In this document: piece by piece, positions 1,830 through 41,706 of the stretch
How positions within the stretch are numbered: the stretch's first letter is position 1
Layout: every line of letters starts with the position of its first letter
DNA from: Undaria pinnatifida
Taxonomy: Eukaryota; Sar; Phaeophyceae; Laminariales; Alariaceae
Length of the DNA: 64,000 nt
Assembly: GCA_012845835.1 (NCBI GenBank)
Contig: JABAKD010000018.1
Span: 2,302,616 to 2,366,615 of the forward strand
Direction: 5' to 3'
Made by a program: the position numbers and the translations under genes
Notes under the pieces: generated by a model
Seen by the model: only the letters and a program-made list of their open reading frames with translations
Database searches by the model: none
What the model was told of the DNA's origin: nothing

Positions 1830-1949
1830 ATTTGGGACACCGCGGGACAGGAGCGGTACGCGTCGATGATGAAGACCTACTATCGCAAGGCGAAGGGGTC
1901 ATTGCTCGTTTACGACGTTACCAACCGAGGGTCGTTTCAGGGGCTAGAG
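1830..1949 (+). CDS. Rab exon [10 protein letters not shown] switch II exon
   Basis: Forty codons from [10 protein letters not shown] to SFQGLE. The donor is CTAGAG|GTGAGT. The acceptor is either GCGCAG|ATT at 1829/1830 or the AG at 1823-1824, which would add AQ before IWDT as in many Rabs. The Gln of WDTAGQ, needed for GTP hydrolysis in the family, is present. Three downstream degraded copies share its 3' end and donor. Confidence 0.92.
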
Positions 1950-4900
1950 GTGAGTGGGTATAAAATATCGGTTCAGTGCTTATTTTTCCCCTCCCCCCCC
2001 CCCACCCCCCTGCCATCGTTTTTTTTTTTTTTTTTTTTTTACGACCATTGCGCGGATCAGACAGATCGCCATCTACAGCTGTAGATAATCTAGATCACGA
2101 TAGATCATCTATCCCCTAGTGCATCTCTACGAGGTTGAGTTTAGCGCTACACGTCCATGATAAGACTTACTATCGCAATGCGAAGGGGTCATTGGTCGTT
2201 TACGACGTTGTGTGCCAACCGAGGGTCTATTCAGGGGGGCTAGAGGTGAGTGGGTGGAAGATATCGGTTCTTTGCTTATTCTCCTCTCCTTCCCCCCGGC
2301 CCGAGATTTTTCCCGTTTTTTGTTTTGCTTCGAACCTCCAACGGGTCGGACAGATCGCGATCTACTGCTATAGATCATGTAGATCACGATATACTGCTGT
2401 AGATAATCTACTGTAGCTACTAGAGTATGGCTCCGGAGTTGGTTTTGGCGGTACGCGTCGATGGCGAAGACTTCCCATCGCAAGGCGAAGGGGTAGTTGC
2501 TCATTTTTTATGTTACCAACCCAGGGGTTTTTTAGGGGCTAGAGGTTGGGGGGTTATGTGAGGCCGGTCGCCGCGGTGGCGTATCAGGTTATCCTCGAGC
2601 CTGATATATGTCACTTTCGTGAGTTTGAGCCCCCCCGAGTGCATACCCGTGTAAATTCGAAGGAACTTTTTTCTTGTGCATAACAAATTGACTTGCGGAA
2701 AGCGCGAGAGTGTGAGTTAGCAATACTCCATGAGAAATCGACGAGCAACTGAACCCTATGCGCGATAAAATTTGAAGGCAAGAACCGGGGGGGAGGAAGG
2801 GACGACGCCTGTGACCACGGCTTTTGTCCAGAAGCTGGAAAGTAGAAGTGCGAAAAACTACAACAACATCGGTTCATTTATTATTTTGCCCCTTCCCCCA
2901 ACCCTTTTTTTTTTTTTTTTTTCTTTGTTACAAGCCTTCCACCGACCGGACAGACGGCGATCTACGGCTGTAGACCATCTAGATCACGGTAGATCGTCTA
3001 GCTCCTCTAATGTATCGGTATGGGGGTTGGGAGTTTAGCAATACCATACGCGTCGGCGATGAAGACCTTCTATCGCAAGGCGAAGGGTCGTTGCTCGTTC
3101 ACGACCTCACTAAACTGACTGTCTTTGCAGCGGCTAGAGGTGAGTAGGTATATAGGATCGGTTCGGCGTCCCCCCCCCCCCCCCACCTCCCCCGCCGTGT
3201 TCCCGTGGTGCTCCGTCTCGAAAGGGATGCGTGGTCAATTGCCAAATGACTACGGCAAGCAACAAATGAGTACGCCCCCCCCCGTCCCCCACCGTGGCGT
3301 TATTTTTTGGTATTTTTTCGCCCCCTTAACAAAAATTGTAGCACTACGTACGTACATGTGGTAGTTTCATTTCTTCGGTAGTTCAATGTTTATGATGAAA
3401 AAGGTATGGATGGCATCAGCCGTCGACCCGTAGTCAAACTGAGTGATCGTTTTATTTTCGTGTTGCGACGCGTGGTACAGTAGAGGTGCACCACTGTTTT
3501 TTCTGAGGTTTCCTCGTTTTGGGAGCTTAACCCCTTTCCAACCGGAAACCCGTTTTTGGAAAAAAAATTACTCGGATTTAGTGTAGGGAGGGGTTCGGGG
3601 GCTCAAAAGGGGTTAAGACCTCTCCCACAAAACTGATTTGGAGAAAAATAAAACTGGTATCATACCGGATGAAAAATCCCATGGTCTCGGTACACGACGA
3701 GAAACATGCAAAAAAAATGGCGTATTTCGGACGATTCTGGGTTAAGGAGCGCCCCCCCCCAGTCATTGAGAAACCATTTCAAACAAAAAAAGGTACACAT
3801 TGATACCTTTATCGTATTAATAGCACGCGTCTTGCCCGCAGTAAAAACGCCATCCTATCTTGCTGGCGGTGGGTAGGGTTATACGCAAGCTGTGGTGAGG
3901 ACACATACACAAAGTATTGGATACGGCACGAAAAGAAGCCTCTGGGAGAAAAGTTACGCACCGTGTCTAAAGAAAATAAAATTAAACCGCCTACCATACA
4001 TATGATAGAGCAGTATAGTGGAAACTACAGTGATAAATTTATAAAATAGATGTGATGTTTTACCGAGCTCAAAATTCCCCACCTAAGGTATAAATATCAA
4101 TACTTACCATTATAGTAGACAAAAAATAGGACACCTCCCAATGAAAAATCACCCACGTAGTATATTACGAGTGCCAACAACGCAGCTTGCAAAGATGAGT
4201 ATTGACCCGAAATTCGTCGAACTCACGGCTGACGTCCTTGAAAATATTTTTATAAAATGGTGTATAAATGAAGGCTTAACACCGAGGGTTTGTCTGAAGA
4301 GCGCCCGCGGGCAAAATAAAAAGCTTCAAAAGGCTTGCTACGCACGACACGCTGCACGGATCACGCCCGAACCTCGACGACGGTGACCGCAGGTCTCCAC
4401 CCCCTTTGGGGTTTCGGGTCAAGGTGGGAGCACAAAGAGATATGCCCGAAAACAGAGGCCGACTGACAAAATATACGTGTACCTATCTATGCCTGGTATC
4501 TGGTACGTACTTACAGTATATAGGGGTCCACCAGACGCCTGCTGCGATAGAGGTATACCTTTTTTTGGCGAAAATGTGTTCTGAACGACGGGGCTCCTTA
4601 ACCCCAAATCGTCGGAAAATACGCCCCCTTAGTTTTTGCATGATTCTCGTTGTGTACCTAGGCCATGGCATTTTCCATCCGGTGTGTAGCAGTTTTGTTC
4701 TTCTCCAAATCAGCTTTTGGGAGAGGTCTTAAGCTCGCAAGTTGAGGAAACCTCAGAAAACAAGTGGTGCACCGCTATCGTAGCACGCGTCACCAGCAAG
4801 GCGGGGGTGTGCGAGAGCAATATGACCGCCGTAGGGGGAAGCCGCTTTATTGATTCCGTACATGACCGCCTAATAGGGGGAAGCCGCCTTATTTACTCCA

Positions 4901-5522
4901 TCTATGACCGCCTTATAGGGGGAAGCAGCCTTATTTATTCCATTTATATATAGGGGGAGGCCGCCTTATTTGTTCCATATATAACCGCCTTATAACCGCC
5001 TTATAGGGGGAAGCCGCCTTATTTATTCCATATAGAACCGCCTTGTAGGGGGGAGCCGCCTTATTTATTCCCCCTATAACCGCCTTACAGGGGGAATACG
5101 CCTTATTTGTTCGATATATAACCGCCTTATAGGGGGAAACCGCCTTTTTGTTCCATAAATAACCAAACCGCCTGATAGGGGGAAGCCGCCTTATTTAGTC
5201 GAGAATGTGAGTGCTATTCCTCAGTCGTGCCGAGCGATTTGACCGCCTTGTATCGGGATACCGCCTTACTCAGACCGCCTTAGTGGGAGGCCCCTACTAC
5301 TGTACCCTGCATGGTATACCCGGTATCTGGTATGTACTTACAAATATACCTTTGTCTATATGTACGATTTGTCTTTTATCTATGTACTTACAAATATACC
5401 TTTGTCTATATGTACGATTTGTCTTTTTCTATTCTCTTAATTTGTACGATTTACGGGCTTCGCGCTAGCGCTTCGATGCCAACGCGGACCCTCGATGCGT
5501 TTACGTTGTGGCCGTAGGACTT

Positions 5523-5589
<67 letters not shown>

Positions 5590-8500
5590 AGTTGTTGTTG
5601 TTTGTTTCGGTTATATTACGTAGTGTTTTTCGTTCGTTGTGTTTTGCCGCTGTTCAGACGTGGCGTAAGCACTTGGACGCCAGTGACGCCGTCGATTTTT
5701 ATAACGTTGTTTCTAGTACTGAATTCGACTTTTTGAATAGTCGATACTTGTATTTGCAAACTGCGTGACTCGTTTTTTCAGGTGTAGTACTCTTCGAAGA
5801 TATACGTAGAACCACTAGTTTTTATATATTTGCTGGAATTGCTCGGTTGGTGCATCCCTGGCCCTTCTGGACGTCCCACGTGGATAACGCCTCCGTCCAT
5901 GACTTTTGGAACGGTACAGCTTTTCTTTTTCTTCTTCCTTCACCTTTTCTTTTTTTCGTAGCCCGACGGAGTTTCATCATACCGCCCAGGTCCCAGCTGA
6001 TCCCAGCTTCGCCCATCATCAGCTCAGCTCCGCCCAGCAGCGGTAACTCAGCAGCGCAGCGCCGTGCAGTGCCGCGCCCTGTCGTGCCCTGCCTTGCGTG
6101 TATGACTCCACTGGGTGCTGCCGGGGTCAACAGGATAATTTTCCACGTGCGATTTCGGCCCGTAATGGATACTTATTATACTATAATGTTCCAAATGGAG
6201 AGGGACAAACGCTGAAACGTTTGTATCCGGGAACGCTTTTCTTTTGTCTGTTTGTTTTTGTTTTTCCTTCTGACACTGTATTTCCACGTCATCTGACACT
6301 CTGATTCCACGTCGATCGCTCACATACGTTTTCGTTCGTTTTTTTTGGTCAATTTTCAGAATTTGCGCAAGCACTTATTAATAGACGCAACAGCACACGC
6401 TTTATGTATTTCCTCCGCGACCGGGAGAAATTATTTTTTTTCGCCTTGTTTTGTTGTAATACCTCTGCCCCCCCCCCCCCCCCCCCCGTCAATAGCCCCC
6501 CATTTAATTAGTATATAACATTTGGCCTCGGTTGGCACCGACGCTGTAAAACATTATATGCATATTGGGGTTGGCGTTGGTTGGAAACGACGCTGTAAAA
6601 CATTATATGCATATTGGGGTTGGCGTTGGTTGGAAACGACGCTGTAAAACATGATATGCATATTGAGGTTGGCGTTGGTTGGAAACGACGCTGTGAAACA
6701 TGCCGATCACTGCGTGAGCTAGACAACCAGGGTATCATTTTTTTTTTTTTTTTTTTTTTTTGGCGGTTATCATGATGGTTATCGAGTTGGATCATATTGT
6801 GCGGGGTGGAGGACCCTAACTCCGCACAAGGGGAATGATCGCATCACGCAGTGTGAATATGGTAAGGCACCCACGAGGCAGTTACATAGTAGTACCCATT
6901 GCTGTCTCTGGAGTGACCACACCAGAAAACAAAGTATCTCCTTGGCGTTGTTTACCACAAGCGAGAAAGTAGGCACATTGTGCGGAAGTCCGTCTTGCGA
7001 GCGGTTCTTGGAAGGATGCAGTTCACCTTTCATGCGACTCGCCAACACGTCACGGCACTTCGCGCTTTGTGCAAGCAATGCCTGCCTGGTTGGTGAAAAC
7101 CCGACGTGCTCCGCCCCGGCATAGTAGGGAGTAGGGATGCGAGGGCCTGTGGTCATACGTTACGGCCATGCACAAACTGAGTATCCCCCCCCCCCCCCCC
7201 TCCCGCCGCCGCCCCCCCGCCCCCCCCCTCGTCAAATTGCAGGCTTGACTTGACGTAAGCCTTTGGACGCCACTGAACCTCGTTGTTTGGTTCCGTTGTG
7301 TCCGGAAACATGCTTTTGTTGTCTCTAGTTGTTAGAAGTTGTTGATTTTGCGACCCGACAATGCTCAGCATGACGAAGCTTCCGCGTCGATCACTGACAT
7401 GCGTTTTCGATTATTTTTTTTTTATTTTGCCATTTTTCAGGAATGGCGCTATTTCTTTCAGCGGCTGAAGAGCGCTGGGCATTGCTGCTCTATCGGTCCT
7501 CACGCAATATAGCCTTTCTAGATTGACAACGAAAATAACAGGCAAGACCCTCACGCAAACTGGACGGGTTGTCTCTCAATCTTCAGCCAGCTAGCTTCCC
7601 CATACGAACGTGGTTCTGCATGGAGAGAAGGATAGCAATAAAATGACGCCCTGTTTTACTGATCGCCCATGAAGCGCTCAATGTGGTCCTACCCGGCACC
7701 ATTCGCCCCGGTCAGCTCGGGAGGGACTCTAATCCACTAAGCCCTTTCACAAAGTATAGGCGATGCAGTGCATGAACATTAGTGTGACATTAGCAATTTC
7801 CTACTGCGATGGATAATATTTTCCACGTCACTTAACACGCTAATGTCTCCATCATGGTCTCCATCATGGTTCATTTCCAGGCTTGATGCTCATTACTGAG
7901 TATTTACTGGGGATCAGGCTTTGACTCATGAACGCTTGCTAGAAACGGGCGACCGTCGTATCACGCAGCTTTTGCGAAGATGATTGTCGGCCCTGAGTTT
8001 GTCGAACTCACAGCTGTCGTTGTTGTAATAATTTGGTGAAGTATCTGCTGCTTGTGGCGGTACGCGCCTTATTCTCCTCGTTTGAGCTCTGGTCCACGGG
8101 GTACAACACGATTCGACGCGAGTCGTCGTGGGAAATAACAGCTGGAGCCTTCCCGAGATAAAAATGAAGGCGTGGGGAGGGGGGGAGAAGAGCCTGTTCA
8201 GTGACCCCCGATTATGAGTAACGTCTAGGAAGGGAGGAGGAGAGGCGAATGGGGCGCGAAGATAACGATAGGCATAGAAATACAACCAGACAAACGAATT
8301 GACGCTTGGACGCCAACGCGGGCCCTCGATGTGGATTCGTCATGGCCGTGAACTTGTTTTTCATGGATTTGTTTTGTAGCGTTTAATCTTGAAGAGACAC
8401 CTGTGAGATCCAAAAGTTGCGTCCAAACTCTTACCTGGTATTTGCAAGCTGCGTGTGGTGCTTGCATCGTTTCTGTTTTTGTTGTTGTTGTTTTTTTGGC

Positions 8501-11500
8501 CAGTTTGCAGACTTGGCGCACGCACTACGTAGGGCCTGGAGCCATCCCACGATGGGAGTGCAGCCGAGGGTTCCTGAGGTTCTCACATGAGGAACTGCCC
8601 GAAAAATGACTTGGAAGGCATTCGTTCGCACAGCTCGAATAAGCTTCTATGCCTTAGTGCTAAAAACATAGGTACTAACTCGTAAAATTACTTGACTACA
8701 GTATACAACCGGCAGTTCCTCACTTGAGGAGCTCGATCGGACAGCAGGTACATTATTAGTTAATCCAACAACTGCAACCCTACCGTGGGATGACTCGGCG
8801 GCAACGCGGGCCCTCGATGTCGTCTTGATTATTTTTTTTTGTTTTTTCGTTGCCCCCCCCCCCCCCTTCAATTTTCAGGCTTGGCGTAAGCACTTGGATG
8901 CAAACGCAGACCCTCGATGCGTTTCCGTTGTGGCTGGGAACAAGTCGGACATGGAGGAACAGGACGTTTCTCCGGACGAGGGCATGGCGTACGCAAAAGA
9001 GGTAACTTATCTTTATTCCTTTACACAAGTTTGCCCTTCGGGAGGGGGTTGCCTTGATATCCGGGGAGTGTCGCAACCTTGAAAGGTAAGACACAGGCGT
9101 TCGCTCCTCGTACCAAGTACTAACTTGTCAGCCACTGGCGAAGTAACCGAGAAAAGGACACCGATCAGGCCAAGTAAGTTTATGGTCATTATAGTTCGAT
9201 GTGGGTGCGTGTCATAGTATAATACATATGAAGGCGTTTGTCCATGGTTTTGTACGCAAAATATTGTTAGGTGTTTGTACGACCAGTTTGTGTGCGGTTT
9301 TGTAGAATATGGTGGCGTTTCTACTGTGGCCGGGAAATAAAAAGAAGTGGAGGAGCGGGAACTTTCTCCGCAAGAAGGTATGGTCTACGCGAAAGAAGTA
9401 CGCTGGTTTGTACCTTATGCCTGGCGTAGGTTTGTACCTTATACCTGATGTAGGTTTGTACCTTGTACTTGTACCTGGCGTATGTTTTTTGTGTGTGATA
9501 TTTTATAAAATTATTCTAAGGACGTCAGCTGTGAGTTCGAGGAATTTAGGGTCGATACTCGTCTTTTGCAAGCTGCGTTGTTGGTACTTGTAATACGCTC
9601 TGTGGGTGATTTTATTTTTACTTAATTAATGGGAGGGGTCCTGTTTTTTTGTTTTTTAGTTTTCTTGCACATGCAGTACTTACCATATTTTGTTTTTCTC
9701 CACTATAAATGGTTGGTGTTGGTAGGGTTACTCTGGGTGGGGAATTTTTAGCTTGTACGCGAAAAATTTACCAGGTACATGGTAGGTTTGTACGGTATGT
9801 ATATTTTTTTGTATGATATGATGGCGTTCCTTCGTGGCCGGGGAGCAGGGCGGAAACGAGGAACAGGAGGTTTCATGGCGTACGCAAAAAGAGGTACTAA
9901 GTATGTTTGTTCCGTACCCCCTGATACACGTTTTTGTATGATATTGATGGCGTGTTGGTTGTGTTTCGTCTATATTCGTGGTCGTGATTGTAATGATTAC
10001 CGTTAATTAATGCGCCCGCTTGTGAGAGTTTCGACTCTTAACGAGGCATTACGTTATTGTGAACGTTAGCGAAGACAGAACACAGCGTCGAGGAGGCGTC
10101 CGTGACGCTGTCATACCCATTGTCCTGATTCTAATATTGACTAAGACAACGCCCCCCCCCTTCTCGTGCTCCCACCTATATTGTACGTACCTGGTAGGTT
10201 GGGTTGGCGTCGGTTGGCAAAGGCACTGTAAAACATGCCGCTCACACACATGAGCTAGACCGCCAGGGTTACCGCTTCATTTTGTTTTTTTGTTTTTTGT
10301 GGAAGTTGATCACAGCTGGCGGTCGAGTTAGATCGATTGTGCGGGGTGGAGAAATTTTGCTCCGCACAAGGGGAATGATCGCATCACTTACCTGGTAGCT
10401 AGGGCTGTGAGTTGGCTGACTATTAGTTGCCAGCTAGTTATTAGCTGGCTAGTTTAGTTAGTTAGTTGCGGCGGTGCCAACTATCCAACTATTTTTGGGT
10501 TTTGGGTTTCCTTGCTTGTAGGAAGGCTTGTTTGGTACGGGGTGCGTAGTTCTCATGCCGTGCACGGCCGTAAGCGTATGACCATGAGGGGAGGGGGCGG
10601 AAAACGGGGACAGGGATCCACACTTTGATGCGAGATGATTTGCCGGGTTCTGCATCTTTGTACGAGTACAGTATACAGTATACAGTAAAAGGTAAAAGGT
10701 AGAACTCTGGTCTTGTGGTTCATGCGGCCAACTGTGATGGCGGGACTTTGTCCCAACGTGCTATTAATATTAATGTAATAATACAAGTATGTCTCTCTCA
10801 GGAGTGTGTCAACTGGATGATGAGCACCTCTGGCTCGGGTGTTTAAGCAATGCTCGCCCTGAGCTGTGTGTCGATCCCAGGCTATTTTGTGTCCTATTTT
10901 TAGTTTGTACTGGTGATGTGCTACTGCCTGCTGCGCGAGTATGTACGTACCATATACGTTTATGGCATCTCTTTAATATCCGACAAACTGAGACGAATTT
11001 TAGAAATATACCTGTTTCGTGATCAAAACCAGAGATAAACTTGGCCCATTTATCATGCTTATTGTGTGTAAAATGAAGGCGAATAGCGTAATTTTTGCCT
11101 CCGGCGGCGCCTTCAGCGGGATCCTCCGGAGGCGCCTCCGGCGGGCCCTCCGGGGGCGCCTCCAGCGGGGCCCCCTCGGCCGGGGGGGGCTTTTTTGGCT
11201 CGCTTCGCTTCGCCAGCCAACTAATAACTAGGCGGAAACTCCAGCCAACTCACAGCCCTACTGGTAGCGCTTATGGTAAGTAACCTACGAGGCAGTTACA
11301 TAGTACTCCCATTGCTTTCTCTGGAAGTGGCCATACCGGAAATTAAAGTAACTCGTTGAAGCTTTCATCCATATGCAAGTCCGCCTTACGAGCGGTTCTT
11401 GGAAGGATGCCGCCCACCCTTTCATGCGACTCGCCGAACACCTCACGGCGCTTCGCGCTTGGTGCAAGCAGTTTCTGCCTGGTCGGTGAAAACCCGACAT

Positions 11501-12193
11501 GCTCCGTCCCGGCGTGGTGGAGATGCGAGGGTCTATGGTCATACGACTACGACCATGCACAAACTGAGTACACCCTCGTGCTACCTTCTCGCTGTGCCTT
11601 CTGACGGTGGTATGGATTCACAGCAAGCGAGGTATGACGTTCTTGCGACGTGAACGGGAGGCAATTATATGGTGGCGTGTTTGTCCATGCTACCCCCCCT
11701 CTTCCCCTGTCATGATATCTTCTCGCTGTTCTTGAGGTTTACCAATAATGACAAGACCCCAACCCCCAGCCACCCTCATGTTTCCTTCCTGTGGTAGTGA
11801 TTTGTAATTTAGCGAAGCATGGCGTTTTTGTCAACGTCAGGGAAAACGCAAGGCAAAGTCGATGAGGCATTCGTGACGCTGCCCTCCCCCCCCCCCCCCT
11901 CCCCCCCCCCCCCCACCCCTTATGTTACCCTTTCGCAGCGCCTAACTCTCTTCCTAACCACGGCAATAATCCCCACCCCCCGCCCCCATATTGACCCCCT
12001 GACGTTTTTATCTTTTGATTGTTTCGACGCTCAGCGAGGCATGACGTTTTTGTCAACGTCAGCGAAGACGGGGGACAACGTCGAGGAGGCGTTCGTGACC
12101 CTTGCGAGGCGTATTCTGCAGGCGGGACAGGAACGACCTTCCGGGGACGCCGCCAAGCCCCACCGACTCCATGTGCGTCAGTCGCCTTTATAG
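1830..12193 (+). CDS. Rab-family small GTPase, 3' part of gene (three exons recovered)
   Basis: Spliced model: join(1830-1949, 8879-9001, 12035-12193), all phase 0. It gives 133 residues from the end of beta-3 to the stop. Seen directly: WDTAGQERY (G3/switch II), [17 protein letters not shown] (G4) and [13 protein letters not shown] (G5). Rab GTPases cycle between GTP and GDP forms and recruit effectors to membranes during vesicle traffic. The order and spacing fit the C-terminal two thirds of a roughly 200-residue Rab. The G1 P-loop and most of switch I are missing and should lie before base 1; a doubtful switch I remnant is at 1341-1401. The subfamily is unresolved; Rab2/4/14/11 are the closest in feel. 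The reading frame ends RLHVRQSPL without the usual C-terminal cysteines. The introns are about 6.9 and 3.0 kb and hold decayed copies of all three exons. Confidence 0.92.
1996..2040. repeat. Poly-C and poly-T run in Rab intron
   Basis: A C-run is followed by about 20 T. It is part of the intron segment that is duplicated together with exon A. Confidence 0.7.
2146..2310 (+). pseudogene. Ghost copy 1 of Rab exon A
   Basis: It matches exon A from the ATG ATG AAG codons through the donor and on into the intron (GTGAGTGGGT, then ATATCGGTTC). It has lost one base in the ATGATGAAG segment, gained bases in GACGTT[GTGTG]CC, and gained two G before CTAGAG. The first 20-odd bases of exon A (IWDTAGQE) are absent. 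It cannot be read through. Confidence 0.85.
2449..2546 (+). pseudogene. Ghost copy 2 of Rab exon A
   Basis: It starts at GTACGCGTCGATGGCGAAGA and follows exon A to GGGGCTAGAG. The codon after AAG GGG has become TAG, and the donor has decayed to GAG|GTTGGG. A SINE (2560-2855) lies directly behind it and splits this repeat unit. Confidence 0.85.
2560..2855 (+). mobile_element. tRNA-derived SINE, full copy
   Basis: The head has an A-box-like TGGCGTATCAGG and a B-box-like GTGAGTTTGAGCCC, as in a tRNA. The body runs through GTTAGCAATACTCC and GCGCGATAAAATTTGAAGGC to CTGTGACCACGG and AAGCTGGAAAGTAGAAGTG. Homologues: 815-985, 44590-45095, 59265-59575 (reverse), and diverged copies near 32110-32420 and 36829-37110. 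It is inserted within the third tandem unit of Rab exon A. Confidence 0.75.
3046..3150 (+). pseudogene. Ghost copy 3 of Rab exon A
   Basis: It begins ACGCGTCGGCGATGAAGACC and ends GCGGCTAGAG|GTGAGT, so the donor is still well formed. One G is lost in AAGGGTCG, which breaks the frame, and the VTNRGSFQ part is scrambled. It is preceded by the same intron block (CGATCTACGGCTGTAGA) that precedes the other copies. Confidence 0.8.
3163..3292 (+). repeat. C-run and dispersed TGCTCCGTCTCGAAAGGG repeat
   Basis: After a run of C, the segment TGCTCCGTCTCGAAAGGGAT continues into a CAAGCAACAAATGAGTACG block. The same roughly 85-bp unit occurs at 20738-20825 and, reversed, at 27558-27615. Its function is unknown. 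Confidence 0.6.
3470..3833 (-). mobile_element. MITE with ACGATAGAGGT termini, interrupted
   Basis: The left end is GTACAGTAGAGGTGCACC; the right end is CTTTATCGTATTAATAGCACGCG. The interior carries the family words ACTGATTTGGAGAAAAATAAAAC and TCCCATGG. Bases 3527-3626 are a separate short element (AACCCCTTTCC to AAAGGGGTTAA), so one MITE sits inside another. Confidence 0.6.
3527..3626 (-). mobile_element. About 100-bp mini-MITE (TTAACCCCTTT termini)
   Basis: The ends AACCCCTTT and AAAGGGGTTAA are inverted copies. The interior has GGAAACCCGTTTTTGG and GTGTAGGGAGGGGTTCGGGG. Other copies: 12325-12435, 17140-17227, 36628-36720, 42412-42497 and 42588-42930, plus tandem arrays at 22790-23200, 31055-31620 and 38530-38935. 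Confidence 0.6.
4173..4240 (-). repeat. Copy of the CAGCTGTGAG...GCAAGCTGCG dispersed repeat
   Basis: Read on the minus strand it has the family form: (ACGT)CAGC, GTGAGTTCGACGAATTT, then ACTCATCTTTGCAAGCTGCG. At least 14 copies occur in the window. 3834-4172 shows nothing recognisable. Confidence 0.65.
4543..4791 (+). mobile_element. MITE with ACGATAGAGGT termini
   Basis: The left end is TGCGATAGAGGTATACC and the right end ACCGCTATCGTAGCACGCGTC. The interior has GACGGGGCTCCTTAACCC, AAATCGTCGGAAAATACGCC and CAAATCAGCTTTTGGGAGAG. No coding capacity. Confidence 0.75.
4828..5300 (-). repeat. AAGCCGCCTTATTTATTCC minisatellite array
   Basis: About ten units of 40-50 bp of the form ACCGCCTTATAGGGGGAAGC followed by CGCCTTATTTATTCC. 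It is the reverse complement of the array at 34600-35420. Confidence 0.85.
5333..5436 (+). repeat. Direct duplication of about 48 bp
   Basis: The words ATGTACTTACAAATATACC and TTGTCTATATGTACGATTTG occur twice in tandem. Confidence 0.8.
5459..5519 (+). pseudogene. Ghost of Rab exon B, 5' part (copy 1)
   Basis: CGATGCCAACGCGGACCCTC then GATGCG, TTACGTTGTGGCCG matches exon B codons for [15 protein letters not shown]. The (TTG)n array starts just behind it. Confidence 0.75.
5521..5603 (+). repeat. (TTG)n microsatellite
   Basis: About 27 TTG repeats with one interruption (TAG). Confidence 0.95.
5650..5694 (+). pseudogene. Ghost of Rab exon B, 5' end (copy 2)
   Basis: GTTCAG then ACGTGGCGTAAGCACTTGGA and CGCCAGTGACGCC copies the acceptor and the AWRKHLDA codons, then similarity stops. 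A diverged copy of the GCAAGCTGCG repeat follows at about 5715-5768. Confidence 0.75.
6020..6110 (+). repeat. CAGCTCAG / GTGCCCTGCC-rich block
   Basis: Low-complexity AGCTCAGCTC and GCCGTGCAGTGCCG words, matching the larger blocks at 18565-18740 and 18842-18965. Confidence 0.55.
6343..6392 (+). pseudogene. Ghost of Rab exon B, acceptor side (copy 3)
   Basis: TTTTTTTGGTCAATTTTCAG then AATTTGCGCAAGCACTTA resembles the acceptor tract and the first codons of exon B. Weak but placed like the others. Confidence 0.5.
6469..6487. repeat. Poly-C run
   Basis: About 19 uninterrupted C. Confidence 0.9.
6523..7180 (+). mobile_element. About 600-bp dispersed element, copy 1, with internal tandem repeat
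   Basis: Four 49-bp units at 6523-6710 (GTTGGCGTTGGTTGGAAACG, CTGTAAAACATTATATGCAT) lead into a unique part containing ATTGTGCGGGGTGGAG, CGAGGCAGTTACATAGTA, CGAGCGGTTCTTGGAAGGAT and AAAACCCGACGTGCTCC. Other copies: 10197-11572 (split by a hAT element) and 33751-34250. No long reading frame; probably non-autonomous. Confidence 0.75.
7183..7230. repeat. C-rich run
   Basis: Almost pure C with a few T and G. It lies directly before ghost exon B copy 4, in the place where exon B itself has its C-rich tract. Confidence 0.85.
7230..7318 (+). pseudogene. Ghost of Rab exon B, 5' part (copy 4)
   Basis: TCAAATTGCAG then GCTTGACTTGACGTAAGCCT, TTGGACGCCACTGAACCTCG and GTTCCGTTGTGTCCGGAAAC matches the acceptor and the [17 protein letters not shown] codons with insertions. 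Placed after a C-run, as exon B is. Confidence 0.75.
7425..7920 (+). other. Intronic stretch without a recognised feature
   Basis: A T-run with CATTTTTCAG at about 7440 may be another decayed acceptor. Beyond that I see no exon copy or repeat family. Confidence 0.4.
7961..8012 (-). repeat. Copy of the CAGCTGTGAG...GCAAGCTGCG repeat
   Basis: The minus strand reads GACAGCTGTGAGTTCGACAA, then CATCTTCGCAAAAGCTGCGTG. Confidence 0.65.
8298..8356 (+). pseudogene. Ghost of Rab exon B (copy 5)
   Basis: ACGCTTGGACGCCAACGCGG then GCCCTCGATGTGGATTCGTC and ATGGCCGTGAAC copies the [17 protein letters not shown] stretch with gaps. Confidence 0.75.
8395..8460 (+). repeat. Copy of the CTGTGAG...GCAAGCTGCG repeat
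   Basis: CACCTGTGAGATCCAAAAGT then TTTGCAAGCTGCGTG. Confidence 0.55.
8480..8835 (+). pseudogene. Ghost of Rab exon B (copy 6), split by a MITE
   Basis: The left half is GCCAGTTTGCAG then ACTTGGCGCACGCACTACG; the right half is GGCAACGCGGGCCCTCGATG. Bases 8539-8796 between them are a MITE. The two halves join in the same order as in copy 5, which dates the insertion after the exon duplication. Confidence 0.7.
8539..8796 (+). mobile_element. 258-bp MITE with GAGCCATCCCACG termini
   Basis: It runs from GAGCCATCCCACGATGGGAG to ACCGTGGGATGACTC, with internal inverted words GTTCCTCA.TTGAGGAGCTC. The same family is at 29042-29334, 29567-29840, 48763-49055, 50277-50524 and 56946-57202. Here the 4-bp flanks do not match. 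Confidence 0.8.
8879..9001 (+). CDS. Rab exon B: NKSD (G4) exon
   Basis: Forty-one codons, [14 protein letters not shown] through [10 protein letters not shown] to EGMAYAKE. The acceptor is a run of C, then TTCAATTTTCAG|GCT; the donor is AAAGAG|GTAACT. It joins exon A in frame (SFQGLE-AWRKHLD), matching the Rab alpha-3/beta-5 region. NKSD gives guanine specificity in the family. At least six upstream ghosts copy its 5' end and two downstream ghosts copy its 3' end. Confidence 0.93.
9307..9405 (+). pseudogene. Ghost of Rab exon B, 3' half (copy 7)
   Basis: In the exon frame it reads VAGK, stop, [19 protein letters not shown] against [28 protein letters not shown] falls where the NKSD motif should be. 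Only the 3' half of the exon is copied. Confidence 0.85.
9526..9597 (+). repeat. Copy of the CAGCTGTGAG...GCAAGCTGCG repeat
   Basis: CGTCAGCTGTGAGTTCGAGG, TTTAGGGTCGATACTCG, then TTGCAAGCTGCG. Just upstream, short GTAGGTTTGTACCTT tandem words fill 9410-9490. Confidence 0.75.
9816..9897 (+). pseudogene. Ghost of Rab exon B, 3' half (copy 8)
   Basis: GGCGTTCCTTCGTGGCCGGG, GAGGAACAGGAGGTTTC, then ATGGCGTACGCAAAAAGAGG followed by TACTAA. An internal deletion and one extra A break the frame; the donor region is still recognisable. Confidence 0.8.
10029..10114 (+). pseudogene. Ghost of Rab exon C, 5' part (copy 1)
   Basis: In frame it reads RGITLL, stop, [16 protein letters not shown] against [23 protein letters not shown]. 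It is upstream of the true exon and begins with the acceptor side (TCGACTCTTAACGAGGC). Confidence 0.85.
10392..10399. repeat. 8-bp target duplication, left
   Basis: CTGGTAGC; identical to 11261-11268 on the other side of the hAT-type element. Confidence 0.9.
10400..11260. mobile_element. 861-bp non-autonomous hAT-type transposon
   Basis: Perfect 19-bp terminal inverted repeats (TAGGGCTGTGAGTTGGCTG and its complement at the right end) flanked by an 8-bp direct repeat CTGGTAGC. An 8-bp duplication and TAGGG/CAGGG-type ends are characteristic of the hAT superfamily. No transposase frame is present, so it must be moved in trans. The interior includes a GC-rich block at 11099-11192 made of CCTCCGGCGGCGCC-like words. 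Confidence 0.9.
11099..11192. repeat. GC-rich palindromic tandem block inside the hAT element
   Basis: Repeated GGCGCCTCCGGCGG and CTCCGGGGGCGCCTCCAGCG words could fold into strong hairpins. Confidence 0.75.
11261..11268. repeat. 8-bp target duplication, right
   Basis: CTGGTAGC, matching 10392-10399. Confidence 0.9.
11810..11885 (+). pseudogene. Copy of Rab exon C with an open frame (copy 2)
   Basis: The acceptor TTTAG|CGA is followed in frame by [20 protein letters not shown] and VTL, against [20 protein letters not shown]. There is no stop, but the G5 motif SAK has become SGK. The similarity ends in a long C-run with no donor or coding tail. Most likely a decaying copy; an alternative exon is possible but would alter the base-binding loop. 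Confidence 0.7.
12035..12193 (+). CDS. Rab exon C: SAK (G5) exon and C-terminus
   Basis: Fifty-two codons plus TAG, from [20 protein letters not shown] through [20 protein letters not shown] to RLHVRQSPL. The acceptor is TTTCGACGCTCAG|CGA. It follows exon B in frame ([20 protein letters not shown]). The tail lacks the CC or CXC needed for geranylgeranylation in typical Rabs. A weak donor-like CAT|GTGCGT at about 12172 could lead to a further exon that I cannot identify. Confidence 0.9.
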   Translation, partial: RGMTFLSTSAKTGDNVEEAFVTLARRILQAGQERPSGDAAKPHRLHVRQSPL

Positions 12194-12196
12194 TAC

Positions 12197-12233
12197 GGGG
12201 GGGGCGGGGGCGGGGGCGGGGGCGGGGGGAGGG
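12197..12233 (+). repeat. GGGGGC repeat, G-quadruplex candidate
   Basis: Five or more G-runs separated by single C begin four bases after the Rab stop. Four or more closely spaced G-tracts fit a G-quadruplex. In the 3' UTR or 3' flank it could slow polymerase; this is inference. Confidence 0.7.
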
Positions 12234-12299
12234 TACGGTTTAATGACCCATGCTACGATCGTGGCTAGCACGTTTTTTTTTTTTTCATGTTTCATGAAT

Positions 12300-12475
12300 A
12301 CGTCAGCTGTGAGTTTGATCAATTTTTAACCCCTTTAGAGCTTAGAGCCCCGAAATCCCCCCCCCCCGTACTAATTCCACGTCATTGCCCACTCCCCCCC
12401 CCCCCCCAAACGTTTTCCAGTTGTAAAAGGGTTATGGGTCGATACTCATCTTTGCAAGCTGCGTGGTACTTTTGG
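12300..12475 (+). repeat. CAGCTGTGAG repeat interrupted by a mini-MITE
   Basis: CGTCAGCTGTGAGTTTGATC ends at about 12326 and TGGGTCGATACTCATCTTTG resumes at about 12436. The TTAACCCCTTTAGAG element fills the gap. Confidence 0.7.
12325..12435 (+). mobile_element. Mini-MITE (TTAACCCCTTT termini)
   Basis: TTAACCCCTTTAGAGC to TTCCAGTTGTAAAAGGGTTA, with two long C-runs inside. Nested in the previous repeat. Confidence 0.65.
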
Positions 12476-12633
12476 GTCGCGCGTTTTTTCACTCTTTCAA
12501 GGTATACGAATCCCCTGGATTTGTTAGAAATGCGATTTCGGCAGGTTTCCTCTTTGTCCATGAGGTGTTCTGGCTTAAGGGGGGCGTAGGAAAGGTGTTT
12601 CGGGGGCTGACCCATGCTACGAGAAGGGTAGCA

Positions 12634-12800
12634 CTTGTTGTTGTTGTTGTTGTTGTTGTTGATGTTGTGGTTGTTGTTGTTGTCGTTGTTGTCGTTGTTG
12701 TTGTTGTTGCTGTTGCTGTTGTTGTTGTTTCGAATACGTCAGCCGTGGCTTCGATCATTTTAAGGGTCGATACTCATCTTTGGAAGCTGCGTGATACACC
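12634..12800 (+). repeat. (TTG)n microsatellite followed by a CAGC(C/T)GTG repeat copy
   Basis: TTG repeats with GAT and GTC variants to 12729, then CGTCAGCCGTGGCTTCGATC and GTCGATACTCATCTTTGGAA at 12736-12800. Confidence 0.85.
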
Positions 12801-12904
12801 GGCCCCTCGTTTTTACCAACAGGCGTATTATCCTCTGAGTACGTATGGCTCATATGGATGTCAGGGTGTACATCAACAACGATTTTTTTTTTTTTCTTGC
12901 CATT

Positions 12905-13825
12905 GGGTTTGCTGACTGAAGGGGACAAACTAGTTGGAATTGGTGTGAGTAAATGTGGGATCTGTACGGCATAGATCCTGCCCAACGAATCATACCGATC
13001 GATTTAGGATCTAGGTGATCTTGATTGTGATCTGTTGGACGTGTGACTTTTTTCGAGTCGACCCCTTTAGAATTTTTACCCATACCCGTGTTTTCGGGAG
13101 CACTTTGTTGGAATTGGTGCGGGTAGATAGTGGAATCTGTACGACACAGATCCTGCCCAACGAATCATAGCGATCGATTTAGGATCTAGGTGATCTTGAT
13201 CGTGATCTGTTCGACGCGTGACTTATTTCGAGTCGACCCCTTTAGAATTTTTACCCATACCCGTGTTTTCGGGAGCACTTTGTTGGAATTGGTGCGGGTA
13301 GATAGTGGAATCTGTACGACACAGATCCTGCCCAACGAATCATAGCGATCGATTTAGGATCTAGGTGATCTTGATCGTGATCTGTTCGACGCGTGACTTA
13401 TTTCGAGTTGACCCCTTTACAATTGTTATCCATACCCGTGTTTTGGGGAACACCTTGTTGGAATTGGTTCGGGTAGATAGTGGGATCTGTACGACACAGA
13501 TCCTGCCCAACGAATTATACCGATCGATTTAGGATCTAGAGTATCTAGGTCGTGACCCGCCCGATGTGTGACTTATTTTGGAGTTGAGCCCTTTAGAATT
13601 GTACCCGTATTTTTGGGGAACAACTAGTTGTGATTGGTGTGGGTAGAAGTGGGATCTGTACGACACAGATCCTGCCCAATGAATTATACCTATCGATTTA
13701 GGATCTAGATGATCTAGGTCGTGATCTGTCCGATGTGTGACTTATCTGGAGTTGAGCCCTTTAGAAATGTACCCATACCCGTGTTTTGGGGAACGGCGGT
13801 TTGGGATTTGTGTGGGTTGGAGGGT
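12905..13825 (+). repeat. Satellite array, unit about 174 bp
   Basis: Unit starts (TTGGAATTGG-type) fall at about 12934, 13108, 13282, 13458, 13627 and 13800. Each unit has TCTGTACGACACAGATCCTG, CGATCGATTTAGGATCTAGG and a TACCCATACCCGTGTTTT end. Units 2 and 3 are nearly identical and the outer ones diverge, as expected when recombination homogenises an array's centre. Confidence 0.95.
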
Positions 13826-15790: not shown

Positions 15791-15804
15791 ATGATTGACT
15801 ATTG

Positions 15805-16077: not shown

Positions 16078-16109
<32 letters not shown>

Positions 16110-25800: not shown

Positions 25801-28800
25801 GACATAGGATGTACATGATGTACAGTAGATACGATCTAGATCGTGATGTGTCCGATGTTGTGTAAGGATTGTGGGCTGGCCGTGTCCGTCGATTTGTCCT
25901 GACGACCGTGGTACTATTGATAGAGCCCAAGGGTGTCACCGCCCGGACCTACATCCTTCAAGAGACGTACAAACTCCGTATCACAGTACCCGCGATCGAA
26001 GCAGCGCATACAGCTTGCAGATATGAGTTTCGGCTGAAACATTGATCGCACAGCTGTGCTTCGAAAACGCGACGAAAATAGTGATGGGCTGTTGCACCTG
26101 CTGTTTACTGCTGAGCTGCTACGTATTACTGGTGTTTTATTTGCTGCGTTGGTAGTCTTGTCTGTCATAATTGTTTTATCTTGTCCGTGTCTGTGTTATC
26201 TGCGTGATCTACCGGTAGATGGTAACTTGTCGGTTTTGTGCAGGTTTATGGAACCGCTGGATCCGGGAGAGTCTCTACGCGGTGTATTTTATGGCATTAT
26301 GGTCGTAAATCCTACTGTCAAAACATTACATATTATAGTCTCAAACCTGCGAATATGTGGTATGTACGATCCATACTTCGAAGTATAACGATAAGCTCAA
26401 GCCTTGTTTATATTATGTGATCTATGTGATCTATGTGATCTATGTGATCTAGATCATGACCTGGTCTGTCTGATTCGTGGACCCTCACCTTGTGCAGGTG
26501 CTGCAGCCTTTGGACCCCATCTTGGACTCAGAGGCGTCTCTGCTCTACACGGAAGACGTCAACATGGCGAACAAGCTCACGCCTGTCCTACCCGCCCAGG
26601 GGGGCTTCATGGTCATCCGCCCTGATATTGAGGTTTTCAACGATCTTGTTCAGGTGTGAGCGTTTTCGTTTTTGTTGCTATTGCACAAAACAGTCCACCT
26701 AGTTGGATGGCGCGTGCTACGATAGAGGTGGTGGCAGTTTCGGTCTGAAATTTTTCTGAACCACGGGGCTCGCCTTAACCCAAAATCGTCGGAAAAATAG
26801 CGTTTTTTTCTGCACCCTTCTCGTTGTGCTCCTAGGCCCTGGGATTTTGGTAGCCGGTACTTGTAGCAGTTTTGATTTTCGCTCCAAATCAGTTTTTTGG
26901 GAGTGTGTCTTAAGCTGCCGAATTGAGGAAACCTCAGAAAAAAACGTGGTGCGCCTCTATCGTAGCACGCGTCAGAAAACGAAGTCGAATGCCCCCAAAA
27001 ACTTGGGCGAAGTAAGGACAGGGTGGTGGGGTGGAGGGGGGCGAGGAGGGTGGTGGGGGTGAGGGCAGGCTGGGTGGGGATGGGGGTGGTGCCGCCCTAC
27101 CCGCCCAGGGGGGGTCCTTGGTCATCCGCCCTGATTTTCCGGTCTTTGAAAACCTTTTTCAGTGACGGGGTTGACTAGAGAGTGGGGAGGGGGCATGCGG
27201 AGGGCAGGGGGGTGACGATTTGAGCGGTGTGGGGGGCAGCGTCGGGGGTCGGGTGACGGGGCGGGAGGGTGCGGGGCGGTGGGGGTTGGAGGGGGTGGGG
27301 GAGGGTGGATGGGTGGGTGCGTTGGCCGGGGGGGGTGGGGATAGGGTGCGGTAGGGGTGGAGGGGGCGGTGAGGGAGAGAGGTTGGGGGCGGGGGGGGGG
27401 AGAGAGAGTGCTACCGTACCCGTCCATGGAGGGAGGGTTCATGGTCATCCGTCCTGATATTAAGGTGTTGGAAGACCTTGTTCAGGTGACGGGGTTTGTA
27501 TGGTAATATGATGGGGGCGTGAGGAGGAGGAGGGGGGGGGGTGGTACTATGTTGTTGTTTGCCTTAGCCATTTGGCCATTGACCGCGCATCCCTTTCGAT
27601 ACGGAGCACCGCCAGACAGGGGGAGGGGTGGGGTGATTAGGGGGTGACATATTGGATTTACGGTTTTGCTCTATCCTGATCAGGTTACGGGGTTTCTTCG
27701 GGAACGAACGGGGGGGGGGGGTGGTGGCGTGGGAGGATGGGAGGCGGACGGTGCCTACCTTACCCGTCAACGGGAGTTCATTGCCGTTCGCCCTGATGTT
27801 GCGGTCTTCCATGACCTGTTCTAGGCGACGGGGGTTCGTCCGGTAAACTCATGGAATGTGAATGACTGAAATATAAAAATCCACCGATGATAACGAAATT
27901 ACACGATGTTTGTTTTGAAGTCATCCCACACGGTAGGCGTGCGTCGGGCGGAATTTTCTGAGCTCCCGACTCAAGGAACTCACTGAATTTGTCATCCGTG
28001 ACGTGACTAGGAAGGCGTTCGTTTTCGCGCAACCCGACCAACACTTCTATGCGCCACAGTTTTCGTAAAATAAATTTCCTCGTTAAATGTATCAGACCTA
28101 CCGGGACTTCCTCACTGAGAAAGGAGGCCAGAAACAAACGTCTGACCCATGAAGCGCAACACTTTTTTTTGGTGTGACAGCATTACGCCAACATACACAG
28201 GTCGCGAATCGCGATTTTATTGCTTTGCGTTCGCTCAGGGGACGTCCTTGGTTAACTTTTCGCTGCACTCACAGTTGTATGGCGATTGTTTGTTGTTCTG
28301 CGATGTACTGGTAATCCCGTTTCTTTTGTTTTTTCCCGTCCGAAGATAGTGAAAAGCACGCCGTTTACTCGGGGCACGGGCTGGGGCGGGAGCAAGATCG
28401 GCCTTTTTTGGGGAGGCATTACGGTGCAGGGGCTCCTTCCGTACTACTACGAGGTGCGGCGACAGTTGTGACGGTTGGTGTTCCGTACTACTGCGAAGCG
28501 TGGCGAGATTTTGTGACGGTTCGGTACCGGTGCGGCGAGGTTTGTGACGGTAGCAAGCTGGTTTTCCTTCCCCCCCCCTCCCCATCTTTGCAAAACTGGC
28601 ACCACACATATAAGGGCAAATTACGCAGACTAAAAAGGTGTTGCCACAACAAATACTACAATGGTGGTAACAGCATGTCTTTCGTCGGGTGTGCTACTCT
28701 GCTGGTACCCGACGCCTGGCACGATAGAGGTGTTAAGGTATGCCTCGTTTTCGATGAAACGTTCTGACGGTGCTATTAACCTTAACCAAAAATCGTCGAA

Positions 28801-33623: not shown

Positions 33624-33676
<53 letters not shown>

Positions 33677-36600
33677 CTCACATTAACTCGCATAATCAAG
33701 TCCGTGGTCACAGGACAGGCTCCAGCCACTCTGGAGCTGAGGAATACCCATAGGTTGGGTTGGCGTCGGTTGGCAACAACACTGTAAAGCATGCCGCTCA
33801 CTTCGTGAGCTATGTAGACTACCAGGGTACCGCTTCTTTTTTGTTTTTTTGTTTTTTGTGGAAGTTGATCACCGCTGGCGGTCGAGTTAGATCGATTGTG
33901 CGGGGTGAGGAACTTTTATTCCGCACAAGGGGGAACTGTCGTATCACGTAGCGCTCATGGTAAGTAACCCACGAGGCAGTTACATAGTACTCTAATTGCT
34001 CTCTCTGGAAGTGGCCATACCGGAAACTAAATTAACTCGTTGAAGCCGTCATCCGTAAGCAAGTCCGTCTTACGAGCGGTTCTCGGAAGGATGCAGTCCA
34101 CTCTTCATGGTACTCGCCGAACACCTCACGGCACTTCGCGCTTGGTGCAAGCAATTTCTACCTGGTCGACGAAAACCCGACGTGCTCCGTCCCGGCATGG
34201 TAAGGATGCGAGGGTCTATGGTTATACCACTACGGTCATGCATGAATATCGAGCACCCCCCCCCCCCCTCGCCCCCTTCCCCCCCCCCCCTCCCCCCTCC
34301 CCCCTCCCTCTACGCAATGCCTCTTTATGGACAGGACGGCCCACTTCACGAACTGCCAAAAGCCATGGAACTGCGCTTACCCCCACCCCAAGCAGCCCCT
34401 CTGCTCCAGGCTGGTTGAGCGCTGGCTTGAGATCAGAACTAAGGTCAGCAATACTTCTGATTGTTTGTGTGTGTTTTCGGGGCGGGGGGAGGGTTTCCTC
34501 AGTTTTTGCTCGAATGCTGTAGACTACACCAGTTCTGACTACAAGTGCAAGACTCTTTCATCCTACAGTATGATACTGTAGGGGTCTCCCCATGAGGCGG
34601 TCCAACGAAGGCGGCGTCCCGATATAAGGCGGTCAAATTCGCTTGGGGCAACAGGAGATCTGCACTATTGCACTCATAACCCGGAGTGAACAAGGCGGCT
34701 TCCCCCTATAAGGCGGTTATATATGGAAAAAATAAGGCGGCTTCCCCCCATAAGGCGGTTATATATGGAATAAAATAAGGCGGATTTTCCCTATAAGGCG
34801 GTGATGTGTGGAATAAATAAGGCGGCTTCATCCTATAAGGCGGTTATATATGGAACAAGCGTCTTTCCCCTATAAGGCAGTTATATATGGAATACATAAG
34901 GCGGCTTCCCCCTATAAGGCGGTTATATTGCTCTCGCACACCACCGCTTACACTCGGAATAAATAAGGCGGCTTCCCCCTATAAGGCGGTTGTACATGGA
35001 ATAAATAAGGCGGCTTCCCCCTATACGGCGGTTATACATGGAAGAAAATAAGGCGGCTTTCCCCTATAAGGCGGTGATGTGTAGAATAAATAAGGCGGCT
35101 TCCCCCTATAAGGCGGGTACATACGGAACAAATAAGGCGTCTTTCCCCTGTAAGGCAGCTATATATGGAATACATAAGGCGGCTTCCCCCTATAAGGCGG
35201 TTATATTGCTCTCGCACACCATCGCTTACACTCGGAATAAATAAGGCGGCTTCCCTCTATAAGGCGGTTATACATGGAATAAGTAAGGCGGCTTCCCCCT
35301 AGAAGGCGGTTTATATATGGAATATGGCGGTTATAATACGCCTTATATATGGAGTACATAAGGCGGCTTCCCCCTATAAGTCGGTCGTGTTGCTCTCGCA
35401 CACCACCGCCTTCAAGGGGGATCCCTACTGTAAAAAGCACATGTGCATTATGTTTGGGCCCAGACTAATACCCTCGTACTAGTCTGTACCTTTTCGTTTG
35501 GGGGGGGGAGGGGGGGGGGTGATAATTGTGAATACGTTTGAATAATGTTGTTTCCGCGGCACTGCTGTGCTTGTTCAACGCCGAAGCTCTCAGAGCTGGT
35601 TGAGTGCTGGCTTAAGATCAGAGCTAGCGCATCCGTTTTTCGATTTTCGTTTAACCTTTTTTTTTCCGAAGAATTCGTCGCGTTTCGTTATTTTTGTTCT
35701 TCGTTTGTTTGTTTGTTTGTTTGTTTGTTTGTTTGTTTGTTTGTTTGTTTGTTTGTTTTTTCTATCTTTTGTCGTTTTTTTGTTTTTGGTTTGTGCCTTT
35801 CGTGTTTCGTTTTTTGTGTATTTGTGTGTGTGTTTTTTTTGTTTAGAGCAAAAAAATAGCTCCTAGAGATCAGTACAAAAATAAAGCTTAAGCTCGCCAC
35901 ACTCGTACTTAGTTTGATACATCATACGCAGCCGTTGCGTCAGTTTATTTCAATAGCATTCGCAATCCAGTGCAAAAATAGCTAACGTGTAGCTAGCTAG
36001 TAATAGTACCAAGGTTAAAACGGTGATTTTGTTTGGTCACAGACGGTTTTGATGGTTGATTTTTCGATGGATGGTTGGTGGTTTGTGGTCGGCTGCTGGT
36101 CACTGGTTGCTGCTTTTTTAGATGCTTGGTACGATAGAGGTATACCTTTTTTTGTCTTCTTTGTCTTTTTTTTCTGAATTACGGGACTCCTTAACCCCAA
36201 ATCGTCGGAAAAATAAATAAATTATAGGCCATTTTTTTTTCTGCACGGTTTTCGTTGTATACCTAGGCCATGGGATTTTTCATCCGGTAGCAGTTTTGGT
36301 TTAGCTCTAAATCAGTTTTTGGGAGGGACATGTCTTAAGCTCCCCAAGCGAGGAACCTCAGAAAAAAATGGTGCCCCTCCAACGTAGCACGCGTTTTGGT
36401 AGTGGGTGGTTGGCGGTTGGGGGTGTGTCGCTGGCGATTTTACCGGCATTCCCGTAAGGAGTGACTCACGCTACTGTACGGAAGGAAAAAGGCGTTCCGT
36501 GTTTTTTCTGACGCTCGCACCTTGCGGAGCTCTGAATCTCGCCCCCCCCCCCAAAAAAAAAACGAAGTTTTTAGTAAACTGAAGTTCGACCAGCACGACC

Positions 36601-41706: not shown

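What the first reader, a model, noticed from the sequence alone, without database searches (positions are those of the whole stretch)
1830..41706. Ghost half-exons beside the exons of both genes, with a strict side rule
Seen: decayed partial copies lie in the introns next to Rab exons A, B and C and GT8 exons 3, 5, 6, 7 and 9. Every copy upstream of its exon carries the exon's 5' end with the acceptor side (Rab B, Rab C, GT8 3, GT8 5). Every copy downstream carries the 3' end with the donor side (Rab A, Rab B, GT8 6, GT8 7, GT8 9). Nine of nine sets obey this, and Rab B shows both sides. Inference: each arose by tandem duplication of a segment with one break inside the exon and the other in the intron. 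That keeps one whole exon and adds a ghost half-exon plus a spare splice site to the intron. If general, this is a way for introns to grow without transposons, and it places decoy splice sites beside real ones. I know of no description of this side rule as a genome-wide mode of intron growth.
Basis: partly seen in the sequence, partly recalled or inferred. Interest (0 to 1): 0.9.

Follow-up and report, generated by a model that had tools for sequence, protein, structure and literature searches.

The report
Half-exon fossils from tandem duplications
In this large, probably algal genome, many exons are flanked in their own introns by decaying copies of one half of the exon, left by small tandem duplications that keep one exon whole, which makes exons a readable fossil record of how introns lengthen.

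Summary
In detail: all nine claimed sets are in the window, on the claimed side. Two exons searched as DNA against the 511-Mb assembly matched only themselves and their own ghosts. The pattern extends beyond these genes: of 67 Ras/Rab and chaperonin exons elsewhere, 12 have half copies bearing an exon edge, all obeying the rule.

The cause is ordinary, the filter informative. Exons carry local direct copies no more often than matched non-exon windows (13 of 74 against a mean of 16.6). But at that threshold none is whole-length, wrong-side or inverted (expected 5.8, 9.6, 4.7). So exons look like passengers in pervasive local tandem duplication, and units holding a whole exon seem not to survive; selection is likely but not proved. 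Ghosts decay neutrally: codon positions 1 and 2 diverge equally, and splice dinucleotides persist in 25 of 39 against 0.62 expected.

My paper searches showed no description of the side rule. One potato case reports the same founding mutation, there giving a new intron. New variant of a known kind.

The parts
1830..1949 (+). Rab exon A (intact)
   Evidence: splice sites and open frame; Ras Pfam match of the spliced partial protein
2143..2245 (+). Rab A ghost 1: exon q23-120 plus donor (GT kept); the copy runs on into intron and abuts the parent unit (about 291 bp)
   Evidence: E 4e-17
2448..2544 (+). Rab A ghost 2: exon q24-120 plus donor (GT kept)
   Evidence: E 1e-16
3047..3139 (+). Rab A ghost 3: exon q28-120 plus donor (GT kept), about 70 bp of intron follow
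   Evidence: E 5e-15
5445..5514 (+). Rab B upstream ghost: exon q1-58 plus acceptor side (AG lost)
5651..5731 (+). Rab B upstream ghost: exon q1-74 plus acceptor (AG kept)
6349..6432 (+). Rab B upstream ghost: exon q1-67 plus acceptor (AG kept)
7217..7312 (+). Rab B upstream ghost: exon q1-66 plus acceptor (AG kept)
8303..8367 (+). Rab B upstream copy of exon q13-77 (no exon edge included)
8879..9001 (+). Rab exon B (intact)
9302..9416 (+). Rab B downstream ghost: exon q28-123 plus donor (GT kept)
9820..9915 (+). Rab B downstream ghost: exon q38-123 plus donor (GT kept)
10019..10109 (+). Rab C upstream ghost: exon q1-68 plus acceptor side (AG lost)
11685..11880 (+). Rab C upstream ghost: exon q1-68 plus acceptor (AG kept) and up to 138 bp of intron
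12035..12193 (+). Rab exon C (intact, last; ends in the stop codon)
   Evidence: taken there as 12035-12191; the next two bases complete the stop
20277..20388 (+). GT8 exon 3 ghost: exon q1-66 plus acceptor (AG kept) and 46 bp of intron
20886..20988 (+). GT8 exon 3 (intact)
24611..24925 (+). GT8 exon 5 ghost: exon q1-31 plus acceptor side (AG lost) and about 290 bp of intron
   Evidence: E 1.6e-6; exon alone E 0.049
25156..25272 (+). GT8 exon 5 (intact)
26498..26653 (+). GT8 exon 6 (intact)
27092..27162 (+). GT8 exon 6 ghost 1: exon q86-156
27411..27497 (+). GT8 exon 6 ghost 2: exon q86-156 plus donor (GT kept)
27753..27839 (+). GT8 exon 6 ghost 3: exon q84-156 plus donor side (GT lost)
   Evidence: not found
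28346..28453 (+). GT8 exon 7 (intact)
28481..28523 (+). GT8 exon 7 ghost: last 17 exon bases plus donor side, 44-bp tandem unit
34335..34443 (+). GT8 exon 9 (intact)
35576..35699 (+). GT8 exon 9 ghost: exon q59-109 plus donor side (GT lost)

Best explanation
Exons in this genome are passengers in frequent, short-range direct tandem duplication of intron DNA. When one end of a duplicated unit falls inside an exon and the other in the neighbouring intron, the result is one complete exon plus a half-exon with its own splice site on the intron side: a 3' half with donor lands downstream, a 5' half with acceptor lands upstream. The founding unit is often re-amplified inside the intron into an array that carries the same half. 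Units containing the whole exon are missing, most simply because an extra complete exon would be spliced in and selected against. Surviving halves then decay neutrally as ordinary intron sequence. Shown: the copies, their side, abutment in several sets, shared inner breaks in most multi-copy sets, local-only distribution for two exons, and neutral decay. Inferred: replication slippage or unequal exchange as the physical process, and selection as the reason whole-exon units are absent.
For: Curated table (same-strand rows only): 41 copies in 20 sets at 19 exons; 40 of 41 contain an exon edge and all 40 are on the predicted side (13 sets downstream-3', 7 upstream-5'); 1 is interior. GT8-7 adds a 21st set. 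Local only: at E<=10 GT8-6 and Rab A DNA matched nothing in the assembly but themselves and their own ghosts. Copies abut the parent within about 20 bp in Rab A, Rab C, GT8-5, GT8-7, L020, both L024 exons and TCPa exon 1; the seven ghosts of TCPb exon 4 abut one another, though not the exon. Inner breaks are closer than uniform in 6 of 9 multi-copy sets (P<=0.005 each). Missing classes against matched windows over 74 exons: whole 0 against 5.8, P=0.0016; wrong side 0 against 9.6, P=0.0008; both absent in 0 of 5000 resamples; inverted 0 against 4.7, P=0.005. Neutral decay: codon positions 0.823/0.827/0.705; exon part 0.785 against intron part 0.710; donor GT 18 of 28 and acceptor AG 7 of 11 against 0.616. 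Gene fetched last (L039): 1 of 6 exons with a clear copy, rule obeyed.
Against: The missing-whole statistic weakens to about 0.035 if every sequence is weighted equally. For 8 sets with an estimated unit length, geometry alone gives a 0.23 chance of no whole copy, so selection is not proved. The 13 exons lie in only 7 sequences and the control windows share arrays, so neither is independent. In 3 of 9 multi-copy sets (L028, L033a, Rab B downstream) the inner breaks are not significantly shared. Looser searches gave off-rule rows that I dropped after inspection: one opposite-strand match at L024 (E 0.006); one inverted intron-repeat match at L021; one opposite-strand match (E 0.020) and one apparent whole-exon copy at TCPa 2071, the latter with a poorly aligned, gapped exon part; two TTG-repeat rows at TCPc 844 that in form carry the 5' end downstream; and a weak 57-61% match between the real TCPb exons 4 and 7, which in form is also wrong-side.
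Confidence: 0.82

Rival explanations
1. Pure geometry: the same tandem duplication, but its units are mostly shorter than about two exon lengths, so half copies dominate and the side rule is automatic, with no selection on exons at all. It shares every step of the best explanation but the filter, so the two confidences overlap.
For: Where measurable, units run from 44 to about 290 bp; for 8 sets the geometric chance of seeing no whole copy is 0.23. The side rule itself is a logical consequence of a two-copy tandem duplication.
Against: Matched windows of the same lengths in the same sequences show whole copies in about a third of cases with a copy, even within 300 bp (none at exons: P=0.0096); conditional on the same sequences P=0.003, though 0.035 with equal weight per sequence.
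Confidence: 0.3
2. The ghosts are functional: decoy splice sites or alternative half-exons kept by selection to regulate splicing.
For: Many ghosts keep a donor GT or acceptor AG (for example Rab A and most of Rab B).
Against: Splice dinucleotides are kept in 25 of 39 cases against 0.62 expected from exon-part identity, and codon positions 1 and 2 diverge equally; alignments contain indels.
Confidence: 0.07
3. Dispersed copies: exon pieces captured by transposons, or reverse-transcribed fragments, that landed in nearby introns.
For: The introns are full of dispersed repeats (19.5% of non-exon bases in the sample).
Against: Copies carry intron flank and splice-site positions, lie on the same strand in the adjacent intron, and no other copy was found in the assembly for the two exons searched.
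Confidence: 0.03
4. Assembly or sequencing artefact, or chance similarity.
For: None found.
Against: Exon-part identities of 66-91% are too low for an assembly duplicate; reversed sequence gave 0 same-strand matches against 25.
Confidence: 0.01

Closest known systems
Intron gain by tandem duplication across an intron-exon boundary, potato RdRp gene (PMC4974935; search listing and passages seen)
   Different: There a new intron arises at the duplicated region; here, as far as sequence shows, the half-exon stays inside the old intron and decays. One case, no side rule, no frequency.
Tandem duplication of exonic AGGT segments as a source of introns (Rogers model; Hellsten 2011 and Gao and Lynch 2009 as cited in passages of PMC3443670 and PMC4974935; the originals were not read)
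   Same: Tandem duplication involving coding sequence and splice signals.
   Different: The duplicated segment is exonic and an intron is created; here one break is in the intron and an existing intron lengthens.
[quoted passage not shown] passages seen)
   Different: Concerns new intron positions, not half-exon relics beside unchanged exons, in the passages seen.
Tandem duplication of whole exons (recalled, not read)
   Same: Local direct duplication around exons.
   Different: Whole functional exons are kept; here whole-exon units are the missing class.

Membership tests
Tandem duplication across an exon-intron boundary | Direct, same-strand copy beside the parent exon | tested here: met
   25 same-strand against 1 opposite-strand matches over 59 exons; none inverted at the fixed threshold over 74 exons
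Tandem duplication across an exon-intron boundary | Copy carries intron sequence adjoining the exon edge | tested here: met
   16 of 18 kept window rows run past the edge; donor position aligned in 28 and acceptor position in 11 of 41 copies
Tandem duplication across an exon-intron boundary | Copies abut head to tail | tested here: inconclusive
   Within about 20 bp in 8 of 21 sets; in the others a gap of decayed or inserted sequence remains, so it is shown for some sets, not for all
Intron gain by tandem duplication | A new intron is created and spliced | not testable with these tools
   No RNA data; the gene models need no new intron
Whole-exon tandem duplication | Copy spans both exon edges | tested here: not met
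   0 of 74 exons, 13 of which have a copy, at the fixed threshold; one apparent case in a looser search, TCPa 2071, rejected on its alignment
Regulatory decoy splice sites | Splice sites conserved above neutral | tested here: not met
   25 of 39 kept against 0.62 expected

The most novel reading that the evidence does not exclude
Splice-junction-anchored tandem duplication, filtered by selection against whole-exon units, is a major and continuing route of intron lengthening in this lineage. Because the intact exon is a fixed reference, every ghost dates and sizes one growth event, so the history of intron growth can be read exon by exon and compared with intron gain, of which these events would be the neutral majority.
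Probability: 0.35. Interest if true: 0.72.

Novelty: new variant of a known kind. Interest (0 to 1): 0.5.

Why it matters
How introns grow apart from transposon insertion is hard to study, because in old intron duplications both copies decay. Here one copy is a conserved exon, so old events stay visible and can be counted, sized and dated. The missing whole-exon, wrong-side and inverted classes give a direct way to measure selection on splicing structure. The same kind of mutation that makes a ghost can also make a new intron, as in the potato case, so the ratio of the two outcomes becomes measurable.

Tried and rejected
Frequency enrichment at exons: rejected; 13 of 74 exons against a mean of 16.6 in matched windows, P(at least 13)=0.88.

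Detection of ghosts through protein-family hits: kinesin exons searched at E<=10 gave 138 matches (only the best candidates are scored); reading the list by eye I noticed no exon repeated within a gene, so decayed ghosts are not visible this way.

Rows dropped by inspection. GT8-6 with 36045-36374. L012 (GGT-rich), L023 (intron self-repeat), the L021 inverted row; L012 and L023 would have counted as obeying the rule; one opposite-strand row at L024 (E 0.006). TCPa 2071 (an opposite-strand row, E 0.020, and an apparent whole copy), TCPb 508 (intron repeat), and weak pairs between real exons (TCPa 6131/12617, TCPb 5770/10194); four TTG-repeat rows at exon 844, two of them wrong-side in form, and one weak row at exon 6509 (E 0.017) lying on exon 242; 6 rows named in its output; its script also skipped opposite-strand rows and rows overlapping the exon. 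TCPb 7166 (E 0.012) and TCPb 12671 (no exon edge) are not counted as sets.

One search was given 25 of the 80 exons: the 13 of the window and the 12 outside already seen to have a copy. Its 40 of 41 therefore describes copies already found; searches examined every exon given to them (59, 74, 74).

Shortage of young ghosts: by the measure no exon's best match reaches 90% identity, against 20% of control windows with a copy; with 13 exons this is not significant, and by exon part alone two copies reach 0.91.

Search for prior description: the listings, and the passages seen, showed nothing describing the side rule. Four of these searches returned no paper, so their terms may have been too strict, and of the 159 papers only 20 were listed. 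Most subscription papers are not held; Gao and Lynch 2009 could not be opened.

Full report
Setting. The window is a 64-kb piece (C24:2302616-2366615) of a 511,146,479-base assembly in 68 contigs. The size resembles the published Undaria pinnatifida kelp assembly (511,280,173 bp in 114 scaffolds; passages of PMC7058681), but the species is an inference. Two plus-strand genes were modelled. One is a Rab GTPase (Ras family, E 4e-35) with a further exon before the window. The other is a ten-exon gene of glycosyltransferase family 8 type; that is a weak assignment, Pfam PF01501 at 16.9 bits below its cut-off of 24.3, with matches to a solved Skp1 galactosyltransferase (E 4.7e-5) and glycogenins. 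Both splice to open frames. Rfam and tRNA scans of the window found nothing.

With flanks, 16 of 18 kept rows cross the exon edge into intron sequence, by 7 to 298 bases. GT8 exon 7, which these searches missed, has a 44-bp tandem unit (score 133 against a null maximum of 81, n=1949).

It is not limited to these genes. I took 46 of 66 Ras/Rab-family exon matches, in 26 stretches elsewhere in the assembly, 15 exon matches of two chaperonin genes and, fetched last, 6 of a third. Over 59 exons (46 plus the window's 13) there were 25 same-strand copies and 1 opposite-strand copy at E<=0.02, at 13 exons; reversed sequence gave 0 and 1. The chaperonin genes add clear cases: three copies of the 3' half of TCPa exon 1, seven tandem copies of the last part of TCPb exon 4, and single copies elsewhere. 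The gene fetched last has one clear copy among 6 exons, and it obeys; two TTG-repeat rows there are wrong-side in form and were dropped. In a curated table of 25 of the 80 exons (13 of the window, 12 outside already known to have copies; same-strand rows only), 41 copies form 20 sets at 19 exons; 40 of 41 include an exon edge, all on the predicted side.

The copies are local. The 156-base GT8 exon 6 matched three places in the assembly at E<=10: itself and two of its three ghosts. The 120-base Rab exon A matched four: itself and its three ghosts, in order. These searches score only the best candidates and skip very common words, and the third GT8-6 ghost (about 73% identical) was missed, so older copies elsewhere would be missed too. 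Searches with three further exons did not complete.

What the rule means. A direct tandem duplication with one end in the exon and the other in the intron leaves one whole exon and puts the half copy on the matching side. The side rule is therefore geometry, provided that no unit contains the whole exon. To see whether that proviso is special, I compared 74 exons with windows of the same lengths placed at random in the non-exon parts of the same sequences, at one bit-score threshold. Exons have local same-strand copies as often as these windows (13 against a mean of 16.6). But 0 exons have a whole copy (5.8 expected, P=0.0016), 0 copies are on the wrong side (9.6 expected, P=0.0008), and 0 exons have an inverted copy (4.7 expected, P=0.005). 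Within 300 bp the result for whole copies is P=0.0096. Conditioning on the same sequences gives P=0.003. Giving each sequence equal weight gives 0.035, and a geometric calculation for 8 sets gives 0.23. The 13 exons lie in 7 sequences, and the control windows share arrays, so these are not independent trials. I read this as good but not final evidence that units holding a whole exon are removed.

How it probably works. First, a founding tandem duplication, of 44 to about 290 bases where the unit can be measured. Copies abut the parent within about 20 bp in Rab A, Rab C and GT8-5, GT8-7, L020 and both L024 exons and TCPa exon 1; the ghosts of TCPb exon 4 abut one another but start about 160 bp past the exon. 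Second, re-amplification inside the intron: in 6 of 9 multi-copy sets the inner breaks are closer together than uniform placement allows (P<=0.005 each), as expected if later copies descend from one founder; L028, L033a and Rab B downstream do not show this. Third, neutral decay. Identity at codon positions 1, 2 and 3 is 0.823, 0.827 and 0.705, so the copies show no sign of constraint as protein. The exon part (0.785) is better kept than the intron part (0.710), as expected when only one partner of the pair is conserved. Splice dinucleotides survive in 25 of 39 cases against 0.62 expected. The physical process (slippage or unequal exchange) is inference.

Share of intron growth. In 302 kb of sequence outside the exons used here (introns, intergenic DNA and any unannotated exons), local direct duplication covers 12.3% (8.5% not also dispersed), local inverted copies 3.5%, and sequence found elsewhere in this small sample 19.5%. 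Local duplication is a real contributor but not the only one, and only part of it touches exons.

What is known. Tandem duplication of exonic segments is an accepted route of intron gain (passages of PMC3443670; PMC2891723). One potato case duplicates an intron end plus the start of the next exon and gives a new intron (passages of PMC4974935). The ghosts here look like the neutral alternative outcome of the same mutation. Nothing in the listings of my searches or in the passages seen describes half-exon relics with a side rule; several of those searches were strict and the library lacks most subscription journals.

Verdict. The rule is less mysterious than claimed, the copies are not enriched at exons, and the decoy idea is not supported. 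The absence of whole-exon, wrong-side and inverted copies at the fixed threshold is the interesting residue and can be tested genome-wide.

Noticed in passing
L037 (C29:12909000-12918900), 6105-6645: A seven-copy minisatellite with a period of about 75-95 bp, seeded by the last part of a chaperonin exon plus its donor; four of seven copies still carry GT at the donor position.
   Followed up: partly
all exon sets: Downstream (donor) ghosts outnumber upstream (acceptor) ghosts, 13 sets to 7, which could mean that a spare upstream acceptor is less tolerated; numbers too small to say.
   Followed up: no
whole sample: No exon's best local copy reaches 90% identity, while 20% of control windows with a copy do; perhaps young spare splice sites are selected against. 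Not significant with 13 exons.
   Followed up: partly
window 12921-13817, 23973-24476, 40078-40637: Tandem arrays without an exon, best pairs 89-92% identical: the background process on its own.
   Followed up: no
G000 C2:16037041-16037637 and C2:16066188-16066784: Two kinesin loci with identical match scores about 29 kb apart, a recent tandem gene duplication or an assembly duplicate.
   Followed up: no
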